Shown here piece after piece: positions 38,586-44,123 of a stretch of 64,000 nt of DNA (positions within the stretch are counted from its first letter, which is position 1; every line of letters begins with the position of its first letter). The stretch lies in contig NZ_JALIEA010000010.1 in the NCBI RefSeq assembly GCF_022869005.1, positions 106,585 through 170,584 on the forward strand, written 5' to 3'. Below the pieces are notes generated by a model, which was not told the DNA's origin, ran no database searches, and saw only the letters and a list, made by a program, of their open reading frames with translations. The position numbers were made by a program, and so were the translations under genes. This DNA is from Corynebacterium kalidii (GTDB taxonomy: Bacteria > Actinomycetota > Actinomycetes > Mycobacteriales > Mycobacteriaceae).

Positions 38586-40871
38586 TCAGAAGTCTGCAGC
38601 CTGACGGAGGTAGTCCCCGGTGGTGGTCCCGGATGTCGCGAGACCCGAGGGTGTTCCGCTGAAGACCACACGGCCGCCATCGTGCCCTGCGCCGGGGCCG
38701 ACATCGATGATGTGATCGGCGTGAGCAGCGACCTGCAGGTTGTGCTCAATGACGATCAGTGTCGCCCCATGGTCAACGAGGTCGTCGAAGAGGTGGAGCA
38801 GTCCCGCGACATCGGTGGAGTGAAGTCCCGCCGTTGGTTCATCGAGCACCATGCGTAGCGCTGAACAGTCATCGGACGCGTTCCTCGTTCCCGGGGACGC
38901 AGTGGCCGTGGCCAGGTGCTTGGCCAACAGCAGTCGTTGGCGTTCGCCACCGGAGAGAGTGTCGATCCCCCGTCCCATCGCGATATGGCCGAGCCCGACC
39001 TTGTCCATCCACGCCAGTCGGCGGCGTCCACTGCGGGACAACAGTGACGCCAGTCTGGTTGGTGGCAGGTCGGCCACATCGGCGATGGTCGTTCCGTTGA
39101 CCGTGACTGAGCGGGCGTCCTCATTGAAGCCGGTGCCGGAGCATGCGTCACACGGGACGACGGTGTCATCGAGGAAGGCGAGGTCGATGACGATCTCTCC
39201 GCGCCCGCCGCACTCCGGGCAGGCGCCTTTCGAGTTCCGGGAGAACCACGACCTATCCAGCCCTTCTGCCTTTCCTGCCCGTGCAAATACCGAGCGGACC
39301 TCGTCGGCGATGCTCATCACCGTCAGCGGTGTCGATCGTCGTCCCCCGTGGAGCGGTTGCTGGCTGATGACAACGAACTCCGGATGTTGAGTCACGAAGT
39401 CCATGACCAACGACGATTTTCCACTTCCGGCGACTCCGGTGACGACAGTGAGGACACCCTCAGGCACCCTGGCGGTGACATGGTCGAGATTGTTACTGCA
39501 TGCATCGGTGACCAGGAACTGCCCACGAGGGGTACGGCAGTCCCGTCTGGGGGTGAATCGTTGTTGTGCCGGTGCAGGGGAAGGCGGCCCGGCATAGACA
39601 AGACGACCACCGTCGTTACCCGCGCCAGGGCCGAGGTGAAGCACGCGGTCTGCCGCCTGAATCATACGACGGTTGTGCTCCACCACGAGGACGGTGTTGC
39701 CCCGGTCACGGAGTCTGCAGAGGAGGCCCGCCAGCCTGTGGACGTCATGCGCGTGCAGGCCGATACTTGGTTCATCGAGGATGTAGGTCACGTCGGTCAA
39801 CGAGCTGGCGAGCTGCCGGACGATCTTCACCCGCTGGGCCTCGCCGCCGGAGAGCCCGGGCGAGGGCCGTCCCAAGGTGAGGTAGCCGAGACCCACGTCC
39901 GCCAGGCCGTCCAATGTGGCAGAGATGTCGTCGACCAGGGGTGCTGCCCGTTCGCCGAGGAGATCACCGACCTCCGCGACGATGTCGCGCAGTCGGGTGA
40001 CGGGGGTGTCCATCCAGTCCGCGATGGATCTGCCGTCGATCATGCTCGCCCGCGCCTCGGCGTTCACGCGCGATCCGTCACATGCCGGGCACGTTGTTGT
40101 CCGGACGAGTTGGTCCAGGGCCCGCGCCTCCTTCGTGGTGATGTGGGGCGGGGTCTGCGCCAGGTAGCGCTTCCTGATCTGTGTGACGGCGCCAGTGAAC
40201 AAGCCGTGTTTCGCGTACTCTTCACCCGGGTTGGGCAGCTGCAGCTTGTCGGCATGCAGCAATGTATGCCGGGTGGATTCCGGCAGCTGGCCCCACGGGA
40301 TGTCTGGGTCCGCCAAGCCGGAGTCGATGAGTTGACGAGAGCGGTAGCCTCCGGGCTGGAAGCTGGGAAAGAGTATCGGCCCCTCTCTCAGTGTCCGTTC
40401 TGTATCGACGAGCGCGACGTCGTCAATGACGCGTCGTGTGCCGAGCCCCTGGCAGGATCGGCACATCCCGGCAGGGTCATTCGGAGAGTAGGCAGGGGAG
40501 AATCCCGCCGATGGTGTGCCAAACCGTGAAAACAGCATCCGCAGCGTGCCGGCGACATCGGTCGCCGTGGCCACGGTCGACCGGGCGTTGCCGGTGAACC
40601 GTCGTTGATCGACAACCACCGTGAAGGTGAGCCCGGTGATCTTGTCGCAGTCCGCACGAGGGTGTTTCGCCAGTCGTGCGCGGACGAAGCTGGGGTAGCT
40701 CGCCGCAGTGGCGCTCTGGGCTTCTGCTGCAATCGTCGCGAACACCAGTGAGGTCTTACCGGACCCGGACACTCCGGTGACGACGGTGAACGCGTGCTTG
40801 GGAAGAGAGACGTCAATGCCTGTGAGGTTGTGTGTGCGTGCACCCGTGACGGTGATCTCGTGAGTATGCAT
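38586..40871 (-). CDS. UvrA-like ABC ATPase (class II UvrA / drug resistance type)
   Basis: About 761 residues, shorter than UvrA (about 950) because the UvrB-binding region is missing. It has two ABC modules, each with Walker A (GVSGSGKTSL near residue 33; GVAGSGKSSL in the second) and signature (LSGGEAQR, LSGGERQR), plus Cys clusters CPACDGS and CDACSGTG for zinc. Such UvrA2 proteins are linked to tolerance of DNA-binding drugs. Diverges from a WYL regulator with a shared palindrome, so the regulator probably controls it. Confidence 0.88.
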   Translation of the reverse strand: MHTHEITVTGARTHNLTGIDVSLPKHAFTVVTGVSGSGKTSLVFATIAAEAQSATAASYPSFVRARLAKHPRADCDKITGLTFTVVVDQRRFTGNARSTVATATDVAGTLRMLFSRFGTPSAGFSPAYSPNDPAGMCRSCQGLGTRRVIDDVALVDTERTLREGPILFPSFQPGGYRSRQLIDSGLADPDIPWGQLPESTRHTLLHADKLQLPNPGEEYAKHGLFTGAVTQIRKRYLAQTPPHITTKEARALDQLVRTTTCPACDGSRVNAEARASMIDGRSIADWMDTPVTRLRDIVAEVGDLLGERAAPLVDDISATLDGLADVGLGYLTLGRPSPGLSGGEAQRVKIVRQLASSLTDVTYILDEPSIGLHAHDVHRLAGLLCRLRDRGNTVLVVEHNRRMIQAADRVLHLGPGAGNDGGRLVYAGPPSPAPAQQRFTPRRDCRTPRGQFLVTDACSNNLDHVTARVPEGVLTVVTGVAGSGKSSLVMDFVTQHPEFVVISQQPLHGGRRSTPLTVMSIADEVRSVFARAGKAEGLDRSWFSRNSKGACPECGGRGEIVIDLAFLDDTVVPCDACSGTGFNEDARSVTVNGTTIADVADLPPTRLASLLSRSGRRRLAWMDKVGLGHIAMGRGIDTLSGGERQRLLLAKHLATATASPGTRNASDDCSALRMVLDEPTAGLHSTDVAGLLHLFDDLVDHGATLIVIEHNLQVAAHADHIIDVGPGAGHDGGRVVFSGTPSGLATSGTTTGDYLRQAADF

Positions 40872-40890
40872 GGCGACCACGCTAGGGTCA

Positions 40891-40925: not shown

Positions 40926-41918
40926 ATGTCAAAGTCCGCTGACCGGTTGTTTCGGCTTCTGTCTCTGCTGGAAGACGGGTCGCCCTGGACGGCCGGCGAG
41001 CTGGCGTCCGCGATGGACGTGCCGGGGCGGACACTGCGCCGGGACATCGCGTCCCTGAAAGACTCGGGTTACGACGTCACGAGCACCCGCGGGCGTGGCG
41101 GGCACTACCGGCTTAACAGCCACAACTCCGTTCCCGTGCTCCCGATCCAGGGGGACGAAGCAGTCGCCGTGGTGGTGAGCCTCCATGCTGCAGCGAAGGG
41201 CGTGGTCGGGATCAACTTCCCGCATCGCGCCGTAGTTCGCGCGAAGCGCCGGCTCCGCGACCTGTTGTCCCCGGAAGACCGGCGTCAGGCCGATACGGTG
41301 ATCGCCGCGATCGATTTCAGCACTGAGCGCAGCTCGCGTGTGAGCGAAGGGACATTGTCCCTGTTGGCCCGGGCAATTCGGGAGAGTCGGGAGATCACCT
41401 TCAGCCATGTCGGGCGTGGCGGGCAGCGGCGACGAAGTGTGGAACCCGCCAGGTTGGTGAACCTCGAGCATCGGTGGTACCTCCATGGCTGGGACCGCGA
41501 CCGGCGGGGTTGGAGGACCTTCCGGCTGGATCGGATCAGCGGACTTGCCACCACCTCCAACCGGTTTGTGCCTGCGCCCTTACCGGAGGGCGATATCGCC
41601 GAGGTCATCAGAGGTGATTTCCATCGCGAGAGGTACCACTCCGTGACCCTCGACCTGCGTGCGACTCCCACTGAGGCAGCGTCTCGTCTCTACCGGGTCG
41701 ACGGTGTCCTTGAACCACTCGAGTCACCGGAGGACGGTACCTGGACGCGGTACCTGGCACTGGTGGAGTCATTCGAAGAACTTCTCACTGTCCTGGTACT
41801 CAGCGATCTGGAGTTCACGGTTGTCGACCCGCCGGAGTTCCGCGCCATGGTGCGGGAATCATCTGCGCGGTTTCACCGCGCAGTGACAGGACCGCACGTA
41901 CAGGGAGGGGGCGGCTGA
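40926..41918 (+). CDS. WYL domain transcriptional regulator (YafY family)
   Basis: 330 residues. An N-terminal HTH_11 winged helix (residues about 5-60) is followed by a WYL domain with RWYLHGWDRDRRGWRTFRLDRI (key residues RWYLHGWD, FRLDRI) and a C-terminal WCX-type extension. WYL regulators often sense nucleic acids or nucleotides and respond to DNA damage. ATG at 40926. It overlaps a palindromic operator and likely controls itself and the divergent UvrA-like gene. Confidence 0.88.
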   Translation: MSKSADRLFRLLSLLEDGSPWTAGELASAMDVPGRTLRRDIASLKDSGYDVTSTRGRGGHYRLNSHNSVPVLPIQGDEAVAVVVSLHAAAKGVVGINFPHRAVVRAKRRLRDLLSPEDRRQADTVIAAIDFSTERSSRVSEGTLSLLARAIRESREITFSHVGRGGQRRRSVEPARLVNLEHRWYLHGWDRDRRGWRTFRLDRISGLATTSNRFVPAPLPEGDIAEVIRGDFHRERYHSVTLDLRATPTEAASRLYRVDGVLEPLESPEDGTWTRYLALVESFEELLTVLVLSDLEFTVVDPPEFRAMVRESSARFHRAVTGPHVQGGGG

Positions 41919-41957: not shown

Positions 41958-42482
41958 CTACGGTGCAGACCGGATATCGGCGCTCCAGTTACCGGAACCG
42001 TCCTGCATCCACGCGATCGTGCCGTTCTCGAAGTCCTGGGTCCAGCCCTGCATGGCGTCGCCCGTCTCCGGGGCCGTGGGGAGGCCGATCTCGTTGTCCA
42101 GGCCGCCGTCATTGGCCCAGGTCTCACCGATCTTCCCGATGAGGGGGACGACGTCACCGTCGCCGTTCTCCACGGCCCAGCCGTGGTCGAACGTCGCCAG
42201 GGTCGCGCCGTTCCTGCTCTCGACGTTCTGCACCGCTCCCCACGGCCCCTGCTCGCCACCCGCCTCATCGTAGGCGGCCTGCAGGCCCTCCGTGAGTTCG
42301 GTGCCGGACGGTGCCTCCGTCGCGGAGCCGGAGGCCGACGACGTATCGGGTGCACCGCTCTCCGCTGCTGAACTCGTGTCCGGTGCTGTGTCAGAAGAGT
42401 CGTCCTGGTTGCATGCTGCGGCACCGAGAACGAGACCGCCTGCGACGAGAACTGTGGCTGTGCGCTTGAGATGGATCCTCAT
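41958..42482 (-). CDS. Lipoprotein with LGFP-like repeat
   Basis: 174 residues. Signal peptide with lipobox GAAAC (Cys24), a Ser/Thr/Asp/Ala-rich linker to about residue 65, then a segment with IGLPTAPE followed by GWTQDFENGTIAW. That pattern resembles LGFP repeats, which in corynebacteria attach proteins to the mycolyl-arabinogalactan wall. Role unknown. The neighbouring two microproteins also look envelope-related, but a link is only positional. Confidence 0.7.
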   Translation of the reverse strand: MRIHLKRTATVLVAGGLVLGAAACNQDDSSDTAPDTSSAAESGAPDTSSASGSATEAPSGTELTEGLQAAYDEAGGEQGPWGAVQNVESRNGATLATFDHGWAVENGDGDVVPLIGKIGETWANDGGLDNEIGLPTAPETGDAMQGWTQDFENGTIAWMQDGSGNWSADIRSAP

Positions 42483-42666
42483 GGTGGAACTGCCTTCCGT
42501 TGGTGAATCGCGGGTTGACGTTCACGCACCGTTGTACATCATCGCTGCGGAACTCGCAGCGTGTCGGCACCATATTCCAGCGTTCTCATTTGTGGAGGAA
42601 AAATTTCGCCTAGTGTAGATATCGTCATCACGACAATGGACACCTCACACAGTTGAAAGGCACAGC

Positions 42667-42846
42667 ATGGATTCTCTCATCGCCCTCATCGAGTCACTCG
42701 TCGACGTCGGTTCCTCCGCCCTGGACCTCGGTTCCTCGGTACTTTCCGGCGACGGATCGCTCGCCGTGGGCTCCTCCGCACTGGATCTCGGCTCCGCCAG
42801 TGTGCAGCTGAGCAGCGCAGGCTCCGACATCCTCCCGGGGAGCTGA
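42667..42846 (+). CDS. 59-aa acidic microprotein with GSS repeats (1 of 2)
   Basis: Starts MDSLIALIESLVDVGSSALD. Contains no Lys, Arg or His and seven acidic residues. The motif VGSSALDLGS occurs twice (about residues 14-23 and 34-43), followed by VQLSSAGSDIL. No signal peptide. GAAAGG precedes the ATG by eight bases. A paralogue lies 99 bases downstream. Size, acidity, lack of signal peptide and hydrophobic spacing recall corynebacterial PorA/PorH pore peptides, but no specific sequence match is claimed. Confidence 0.7.
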   Translation: MDSLIALIESLVDVGSSALDLGSSVLSGDGSLAVGSSALDLGSASVQLSSAGSDILPGS

Positions 42847-42870
42847 CCGGGGGTAGTCGTGGCGTTCCTG

Positions 42871-42898
42871 TTGCGGGAGGGGAAGGGGTGCCTAAAGT
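42871..42898 (+). promoter_or_regulatory. Candidate promoter of the second microprotein
   Basis: TTGCGG (42871-42876), 16 bases, TAAAGT (42893-42898). A 10-bp palindrome GCTGTACAGC follows at 42903-42912, in the position of the transcription start. Confidence 0.5.
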
Positions 42899-42945
42899 AG
42901 TCGCTGTACAGCGTCCGCTGGCACCCCTCTCACGAAAGGTCCACC

Positions 42946-43137
42946 ATGGATACTCTCATTGAACCCCTCATCAATCTCCTGACCTCGGTCGTCGGCCTCG
43001 GATCCTCGGTCGCCACCGGTAACCCCGTCGGCATCGGCTCGTCCACCCTGGAACTCGGTTCCTCGGCCATCGACCTGAGCAGTGCCGGCTCGTCCGTCCT
43101 GCAGCCGGGTGACGGCGCCGAAACCGCCGCCAACTGA
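42946..43137 (+). CDS. 63-aa acidic microprotein with GSS repeats (2 of 2)
   Basis: Starts MDTLIEPLINLLTSVVGLGS. Contains no Lys, Arg or His. The IGSSTLELGSS motif is followed by AIDLSSAGSSVLQPG, closely matching the C-terminal part of the 59-aa neighbour. The ATG has GAAAGG eight bases upstream, the same leader layout as the first gene. Clearly a tandem duplication, each copy with its own leader. Function unknown; pore-forming or surface peptide is the working guess. Confidence 0.72.
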   Translation: MDTLIEPLINLLTSVVGLGSSVATGNPVGIGSSTLELGSSAIDLSSAGSSVLQPGDGAETAAN

Positions 43138-43634
43138 TCAGGCGGTGCGGCGGTTGCGTACCGCCGCCGCACCGACCAGCAACACCCCGACCGCTATCCA
43201 GGCGAGCAGGACCCACACGGAGTAGGCGATTCCGGCGCCGATCGGCATGTACTGGCCGACGGCAGCCACTGCCAGCCCGTGGCGGTACCGGACAACGGGT
43301 TGGACACGAACAGGGTCAGCACGGCGCCGAGCGCCAGGCCGGGCCCCGACCAACGCCTCCAGTCCGAGGACGAACAACGACGTGCCCGCGATGCCCAACG
43401 CCAGGACGCCCGCCGTCGCCCAGCAGTTCCCGTCGAAGGTGCCGAAACCGAACTGGAGGACGGCCCCGGCAGCCAGGCCGGCTGCCAGGGAGAACAACGC
43501 AGCACCGAGGACACGGTGCAGGTCGCGCTTCTTCATCGCCGACACCATGCCGCCGAAGGCCAGGGGGAGGGCCAGTGCGCTGAGCCCGCCGGCCGTGGGG
43601 TCGTCATAGGTGGTGACCGCGACCTTCTCGTCGA
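43138..43634 (-). pseudogene. Remnant of a membrane permease gene, 5'-truncated and frameshifted
   Basis: Hydrophobic segments TAGGLSALALPLAFGG, GAALFSLAAGLAAG and AYSVWVLLAWIAVG lie in one frame, but the middle (about 43270-43350) reads correctly only in another frame, as PGLALGAVLTLFVSNPLSG and TATGWQWLP. Two indels are needed to restore one protein. NPLSG...WLP...GQYMP is a pattern of ABC-2-like membrane proteins often encoded beside TetR genes. The 5' end is lost at about 43635, where a truncated tetR begins on the other strand. Confidence 0.65.
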
Positions 43635-44123
43635 GTGTGGATACGCACCGTCGCCGCGGAAGTCGGGGTGGGCATCGGCACCCTCTACCGCCATTTCCCC
43701 ACGCGTGACGACCTGGTCATCGGCCTGATCGAGGAGATCGCCGACCGCGTCCTCACGATCATCCACCGGTACGGCGAGGGGGGACGGGACATGGGGGACA
43801 TGGCGTGGCTTCGTCCACGAGGTTGCGGAGCTGAAACTCGCCGCCCTGGCCGGCCGTACGGTCGCGGTCACGCCGGTCGACAGCCCGGTGTGGACCGCCA
43901 CCGAACCTCTCCGGGAGAAGTTCCTCGACGCGTACCGCGGAATCCTCGACCTCGCCGCGGACAGCGGCCTCGTGGACCCCGGCCTGACCGCATGGCGTTT
44001 CCACCTCGGGGTGGCCGCCGCCCCCTGCCCGAGAGGGCGCAGAGCTTCGCCCCCGGTCAGGCAGACTGGCTGGTCGACACGTTCATCACAGGACCCGCGG
44101 GTAGTTCCGCACCGCGCGGGTGA
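43635..44123 (+). pseudogene. TetR regulator remnant, N-terminally truncated with frameshifts
   Basis: Begins inside the helix-turn-helix: RTVAAEVGVGIGTLYRHFPT, followed by RDDLVIGLIEEIADRVL. After about 43805 the protein continues in another frame (FVHEVAELKLAALAGRTVAV and so on to about 44020), then returns to the first frame (PLPERAQSFAPGQADWLVDT). The first HTH helix and start codon are missing, the product of a deletion that joins it to the divergent permease remnant. Overlaps the alkZ-like 3' end. Confidence 0.75.

What the first reader, a model, noticed from the sequence alone, without database searches (positions are those of the whole stretch)
42667..43137. Tandem microproteins without any basic residues, built from GSS repeats
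Two adjacent genes encode 59- and 63-residue proteins that share MD(S/T)LI at the start, repeats of the form (V/I)GSS(A/T)L(D/E)LGSS, and a common LSSAGS tail. Both lack Lys, Arg and His and have no signal peptide. Each has its own GAAAGG leader. Corynebacterial mycomembrane pore peptides PorA/PorH share small size, acidity, lack of signal peptide and tandem coding, but I see no direct sequence match, so this could be a new family.
Basis: partly seen in the sequence, partly recalled or inferred. Interest (0 to 1): 0.7.

Follow-up and report, generated by a model that had tools for sequence, protein, structure and literature searches.

The report
GSS-repeat mycomembrane microprotein pair
Two neighbouring, related genes in a small group of Corynebacterium species encode tiny acidic proteins that probably sit in these bacteria's unusual outer membrane and may stand in for the usual tiny pore proteins, which were not found there.

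Summary
A (42667-42846, 59 aa) and B (42946-43137, 63 aa) lack Lys/Arg/His, share GSS repeats and LSSAGS, and each has a GAAAGG leader. They are real genes: the tandem pair is kept in 5 of 242 Corynebacterium genomes, and dN/dS is lowest in the annotated frame. A and B look like duplicates (45% identity).

They match no Pfam or NCBIfam family above its cut-off, PorA/PorH models included. Their GSS tail is shared with corynebacterial microproteins that carry a PSMbeta domain, one of them in the same genome. The tail resembles reported O-mycoloylation sites (penultimate Ser in PorH and ProtX; Ser/Gly/Ala-rich sites). The groEL2-ppk2 slot, where PorA/PorH usually lie, is empty in all 5 pair-bearing genomes and filled in 18 of the 25 nearest others; this is one clade, and 7 relatives without the pair also have an empty slot.

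Best reading: mycomembrane microproteins without a Sec signal, O-mycoloylated on tail serines, probably a channel standing in for PorA/PorH. Localisation, acylation and pore activity are inferred. 'Works like PorA/PorH' is plausible; membership of PorA/PorH fails.

The parts
42667..42846 (+). Gene A, 59 aa, GSS-repeat microprotein without K/R/H
   Evidence: Tandem pair in 5 of 242 Corynebacterium genomes; dN/dS lowest in this frame
42946..43137 (+). Gene B, 63 aa, GSS-repeat microprotein without K/R/H, likely duplicate of A (45% identity)
42655..42660 (+). GAAAGG, Shine-Dalgarno-like, gene A
42934..42939 (+). GAAAGG, Shine-Dalgarno-like, gene B
42590..42616 (+). Promoter-like TTGTGG-N15-TAGTGT before A, by eye
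   Evidence: TAGTGT conserved in the 5-row alignment, positions; not reported by the consensus scan
42871..42898 (+). Promoter-like TTGCGG-N16-TAAAGT before B, by eye
   Evidence: Conserved as TTGC..N16..TAA(A/G)(G/A)T in 5 rows, positions; not reported by the consensus scan
42857..42876 (+). Hairpin after the A stop; its 3' arm overlaps the -35-like element of B
   Evidence: RNAalifold on 5 sequences: both pairs with changes on both sides lie here, one of them broken in 2 of 5 rows

Best explanation
A and B are a duplicated pair of microproteins of the mycomembrane (the corynebacterial outer membrane). Each has a short amphipathic N-terminal helix followed by GSS repeats. Exported without a Sec signal, as PorA, PorH and ProtX are, they would be O-mycoloylated on one or more Ser of the GSS/LSS segments, which holds them in the mycomembrane. 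There they would assemble, most likely with each other, into a channel that stands in for the PorA/PorH porin not found in this clade. Shown here: real, related, selected genes without K/R/H, confined to one clade, sharing a tail with PSMbeta-domain microproteins, in genomes whose groEL2-ppk2 slot is empty. Inferred: export, acylation, hetero-oligomer, pore.
For: Tandem pair in 5 of 242 genomes, purifying selection, A-B homology. Tail shared with corynebacterial PSMbeta-domain microproteins: hhalign 30.6 against at most 12.0 in 100 column shuffles. Tail resembles reported sites: penultimate Ser of ProtX and PorH (PMC5310785 passages), Ser/Gly/Ala-rich sites (PMC11066868 passages). PorA, PorH and ProtX lack recognisable Sec signals, and PorH needs PorA for surface exposure (PMC12632848 sections 5 and 10). 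groEL2-ppk2 slot: PorA/H-like ORF in 0 of 5 pair genomes, 18 of 25 nearest others (Fisher 0.0056). PorA-like profile: no match in the 5 pair genomes. AlphaFold: two helices each, low confidence. PF00756 genes, a family that includes mycoloyltransferases (recalled), in 5 of 5 pair genomes.
Against: No sequence relation to PorA-like peptides. Empty slot = one clade, so one event; 7 of 25 relatives without the pair are also empty. G156 and G183 have a B-like gene and a PorA-like gene, so such genes are not only substitutes. pora_1 also misses the PorA-like genes of G115, G127, G146 and G237, so its silence says little. PorA's own site, Ser15, is internal, and no strict acceptor motif is known. 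Helix confidence in the GSS half is low (pLDDT 50-58), and the 100-degree moment there is weak. No direct data on location, acylation or conductance.
Confidence: 0.4

Rival explanations
1. O-mycoloylated mycomembrane proteins of the ProtX type that form no pore: the many serines anchor a repeat that ties the mycomembrane to the cell wall or covers the surface.
For: Many Ser in GSS repeats; [quoted passage not shown] many mycoloylated proteins carry several nearby sites (PMC11066868 passages); the adjacent divergent gene encodes a lipoprotein-like protein with an LGFP repeat.
Against: The tandem, duplicated arrangement and the empty PorA/PorH slot point to a two-part channel, but do not prove one.
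Confidence: 0.3
2. Secreted amphipathic peptides of the phenol-soluble-modulin kind, acting as surfactants or against competitors.
For: The tail is shared with corynebacterial proteins over the Pfam PSMbeta cut-off.
Against: A and B themselves do not match PSMbeta; the shared part is the tail, not the PSMbeta domain (domain-only score 16.4, shuffles up to 19.5). No dedicated exporter was sought.
Confidence: 0.15
3. Cytosolic or inner-membrane acidic microproteins with an unrelated structural or regulatory role.
For: No export signal by eye; no localisation data; low-confidence models.
Against: Similarity of the tail to reported mycoloylation sites; shared lack of a Sec signal with PorA, PorH and ProtX.
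Confidence: 0.12
4. Not protein genes: conserved DNA or RNA, or the antisense frame, is what is selected.
For: The A-B spacer of about 100 nt is strongly conserved with a partly covarying hairpin; an antisense frame is open across both genes in the four species compared.
Against: dN/dS is lowest in the + frame in every pair compared, third-position changes dominate, length differences in B are multiples of three.
Confidence: 0.03

Closest known systems
PorA/PorH porins of Corynebacterium (NCBIfam NF033925 pora_1, NF033937/NF033938 porH)
   Same: Small, acidic, no Sec signal by eye, tandem genes, predicted helical
   Different: No match to the models, no profile similarity to PorA-like peptides, not between groEL2 and ppk2, GSS repeats
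ProtX (Cg2875) of C. glutamicum
   Same: Tiny, no Sec signal reported, serines at the C-terminal end; Ser37 mycoloylated (PMC5310785 passages)
Corynebacterial proteins with a PSMbeta domain (Pfam PF05480)
   Same: Homologous GSS tail; no Sec signal by eye; one in the window's own genome
   Different: A and B lack the PSMbeta domain and carry more GSS copies

Membership tests
PorA/PorH porins | Match to pora_1, porH_1 or porH_2 | tested here: not met
PorA/PorH porins | Genes between groEL2 and ppk2 | tested here: not met
   That slot is 164-176 nt and empty in the 5 pair genomes; the pair lies on another contig (C10, groEL2 on C16)
PorA/PorH porins | Small, acidic, no Sec signal, tandem | tested here: met
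   signal judged by eye
PorA/PorH porins | Amphipathic alpha-helical | tested here: inconclusive
   Two helices each, mean pLDDT 61.5 and 60.2; moment about 0.4 in the N-terminal helix, weaker after it
PorA/PorH porins | O-mycoloylation by Cmt1 | not testable with these tools
   Needs mass spectrometry or labelling
PorA/PorH porins | Channel activity | not testable with these tools
   Needs bilayer or permeability assays
PSMbeta (PF05480) | Match over the Pfam cut-off | tested here: not met
   A and B: none; the own-genome paralogue: 45.3 bits, cut-off 25
Corynebacterial GSS-tail microproteins (grouping made here) | Homologous GSS tail beyond shuffle controls | tested here: met
   30.6 against at most 12.0 in 100 column shuffles
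ProtX | Homology to Cg2875 | not tested
   Sequence not held

The most novel reading that the evidence does not exclude
The GSS tail, roughly (V/I/L)GSSA(L/I)(D/E)LGSS...LSS, is a portable mycomembrane-targeting and O-mycoloylation module of corynebacteria. It is joined to different helical heads without a Sec signal, PSMbeta-like in some species. In the C. glyciniphilum clade a duplicated pair made mostly of this module has taken over the general outer-membrane channel from PorA/PorH.
Probability: 0.25. Interest if true: 0.75.

Novelty: new variant of a known kind. Interest (0 to 1): 0.5.

Why it matters
How corynebacteria choose proteins for mycoloylation and how peptides without a Sec signal reach the mycomembrane are open; reported sites give no strict consensus and the export route of PorA, PorH and ProtX is unclear. 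A conserved multi-copy GSS module shared by several microprotein types, in species where no PorA-like gene was found, would give a testable targeting motif and a second solution for a minimal outer-membrane channel.

Tried and rejected
Family naming: Pfam gave one sub-threshold match for A (DUF7799, 13.3 bits, cut-off 27) and none for B; NCBIfam none. tblastn of B in plasmids and phages: no match; A was not searched there. The PorA-like profile did not align to the pair. Homology to the PSMbeta domain itself was rejected: domain-only score within its shuffles.

Most hits (66 of 151 genomes at E <= 1) and many weak ones look like chance. L052, L053 and L057 are 26-residue frames between stops and were dropped. 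A PF00756-type gene near the PSMbeta-like gene was seen in G030 and G124, at different distances, and in 2 of the 13 loci checked with tblastn (part of the printed output was cut), so it was set aside. A consensus scan reported neither promoter-like pair. No fold search was run because model confidence was low. In one search GroEL2 detection failed for 8 of 30 loci; one search repeated it with another rule and still missed 2 (G045, G203).

Rows left out before a count: alignment A4 holds 10 of the 12 PSMbeta proteins over the cut-off; the two short ones without the GSS motif (G096, G177) were left out, which favours the tail comparison. A1 holds 8 of the 10 pair proteins (G212 was found later). 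The slot was read in 30 of the 239 genomes with a PPK2 match, those with the best matches.

Full report
Observation. The window holds A at 42667-42846 (59 aa) and B at 42946-43137 (63 aa), both on the + strand. Neither has Lys, Arg or His; pI is 4.05 for each. GAAAGG lies six bases before each start. Of 135 ORFs of 50-75 aa in the six frames of the window only these two lack K/R/H, and 9 (A) and 1 (B) of 20,000 shuffles reach their three [VLI]GSS copies; the motif does not occur in 44 non-overlapping long ORFs of the window.

Real genes. A profile of eight such proteins (A1; A and B 45% identical) found the tandem pair in 5 of 242 Corynebacterium genomes: the window's own (G000), G003, G030, G124 and G212 (23 of 242 had some match at E <= 0.1, most of them weak). 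Named records with both genes are C. glyciniphilum AJ 3170 strain DE0385, Corynebacterium sp. CNJ-954 and a faecal MAG; by their sequences some of these are the same as G handles, so the two sets overlap. In ten pairs of five sequences dN is 0.02-0.18 for A and 0.00-0.11 for the first 49 codons of B, dS 0.13-1.02. With four of the sequences, the annotated frame has the lowest dN/dS of the six frames in every pair; one antisense frame is open too but has higher ratios. Genes downstream keep their order in the four relatives compared; upstream ones vary.

Expression signals. About 100 nt separate A and B and are strongly conserved in five rows, two of them apparently identical. By eye B has TTGCGG-N16-TAAAGT and A has TTGTGG-N15-TAGTGT; the consensus scan did not report either. 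After the A stop a hairpin (42857-42876) holds the two pairs with changes on both sides, one of them broken in 2 of 5 rows; the longer stem that follows is nearly invariant and says little. Separate transcription of B is an inference.

Relatives. No Pfam or NCBIfam family fits A or B. A match in the window's own genome, G000:C16:1565-1762, weak by sequence (E 0.076; 5.4e-4 by profile), is a 61-aa protein with a Pfam PSMbeta hit of 45.3 bits (cut-off 25) that ends DLGSSAIELSS. PSMbeta hits occur in 13 of 242 genomes, 12 over the cut-off. By my reading, 9 of those 12 proteins carry a GSS motif after the domain; G082, G096 and G177 do not. In G131 and G200 a second small gene follows in tandem. 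Comparing the pair with ten of these proteins, hhalign scores 36.6, against at most 17.2 in 200 column shuffles. The signal is in the tail (30.6, at most 12.0 in 100 shuffles) and not in the PSMbeta domain (16.4, shuffles up to 19.5). The shared element is therefore the GSS tail. B-like single genes occur in G156 (E 7.4e-12) and G183 (7.3e-8).

What is known of PorA/PorH. In C. [quoted passage not shown] The sites in ProtX (Ser37) and PorH (Ser56) are penultimate, that of PorA (Ser15) is internal, and PorB ends NFSS like PorH (PMC5310785 passages). Proteome-wide sites lie among Ser, Gly and Ala without a strict consensus (PMC11066868 passages). ProtX is described as very small, predicted helical and a likely phage receptor (PMC9671496 passages). 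PorA/PorH genes lie between groEL2 and ppk2 in the species compared in PMC5944148 (passages), where C. jeikeium and C. urealyticum make the channel from one peptide.

The slot. I read the stretch upstream of ppk2 in the 30 genomes with the best PPK2 matches (239 of 242 have one). PorA/H-like ORFs are in 18 of the 25 without the pair: 15 by a motif and Shine-Dalgarno rule, 3 (G147, G015, G045) by eye; in G045 and G203 the GroEL2 end was not within the 1.5 kb held. They are in 0 of the 5 with the pair, whose gaps are 164-176 nt. Fisher gives 0.0056, but the five appear to be one clade, so this is one event. Seven relatives without the pair have an empty slot too. A PorA-like profile (A3) found nothing at E <= 1 in the five, against E below 1e-15 in six relatives that had all contributed to the profile; it also found nothing good in G028, G024, G077 and G066. 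pora_1 hits 59 of 242 genomes and none of the five, but it also misses the PorA-like genes of G115, G127, G146 and G237. porH_2 was sought in four of the five (not G212) without a match; porH_1, PorB and PorC were not sought. So canonical PorA/PorH was not found in these genomes; divergent forms could be missed. The PorA-like peptides of the nearest relatives end ELSS (G237), ALSS (G127), ALSSE (G115) and ALSSGSEGAAE (G146), which recalls the LSS of A, B and the PSMbeta-like paralogue; this is a resemblance, not a test.

Mechanism. AlphaFold gives two main helices each, A 2-27 and 34-51, B 5-23 and 31-49, at low mean confidence (61.5 and 60.2); the first 20 residues are best. The hydrophobic moment at 100 degrees is about 0.4 near the N-terminus and mostly lower in the GSS half. 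I propose a mycomembrane pair held by O-mycoloylated tail serines and likely acting as a channel. PF00756 genes, the family that includes mycoloyltransferases (recalled), are in all five genomes, but a Cmt1 orthologue was not singled out. Export, acylation and pore activity were not tested.

In print. Searches of open-access full text listed no title or abstract about this pair or about corynebacterial PSMbeta microproteins; several lists were capped (for example 25 of 425 papers), so this is a weak negative.

Noticed in passing
window 43138-44123: Two neighbours look shortened or frameshifted: a 136-aa membrane-like ORF against a 319-aa ORF in relatives (L075 5499-6458), and a regulator-like ORF (TetR-like by eye) against 192 aa in L075 6536-7114.
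   Followed up: partly
window 41958-42482 (-): Divergent neighbour: lipoprotein-like protein with an LGFP repeat (26.7 bits, cut-off 22); also next to the pair in L074 and several kb upstream in L076 and L095.
   Followed up: partly
L092 1583-1828 (G000:C16): The PSMbeta-like paralogue lies near transposase- and resolvase-like ORFs (by eye), possibly a mobile region.
   Followed up: no
L060, L061, L067, minus strand 1486-1845: In G044, G144 and G172 proteins with a signal-peptide-like start end in a GSS tail such as GLGSSALSLGSSALGTGSAVLSSPLY; profile match weak (E 0.026-0.093).
   Followed up: no
L119, L121, L122, L124 (groEL2-ppk2 gaps): PorA-like ORFs of 37-46 aa in the nearest relatives are missed by NCBIfam pora_1.
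   Followed up: partly
L166 and L167 (G200, G131): A PSMbeta-like gene followed by a second small acidic gene, another tandem microprotein pair; both genomes also have a small ORF after groEL2.
   Followed up: partly
window 38586-40880 (-) and 40926-41918 (+): UvrA-like protein of 764 aa below the UvrA model's cut-off (568 of 729.8 bits), next to a WYL-domain regulator.
   Followed up: no
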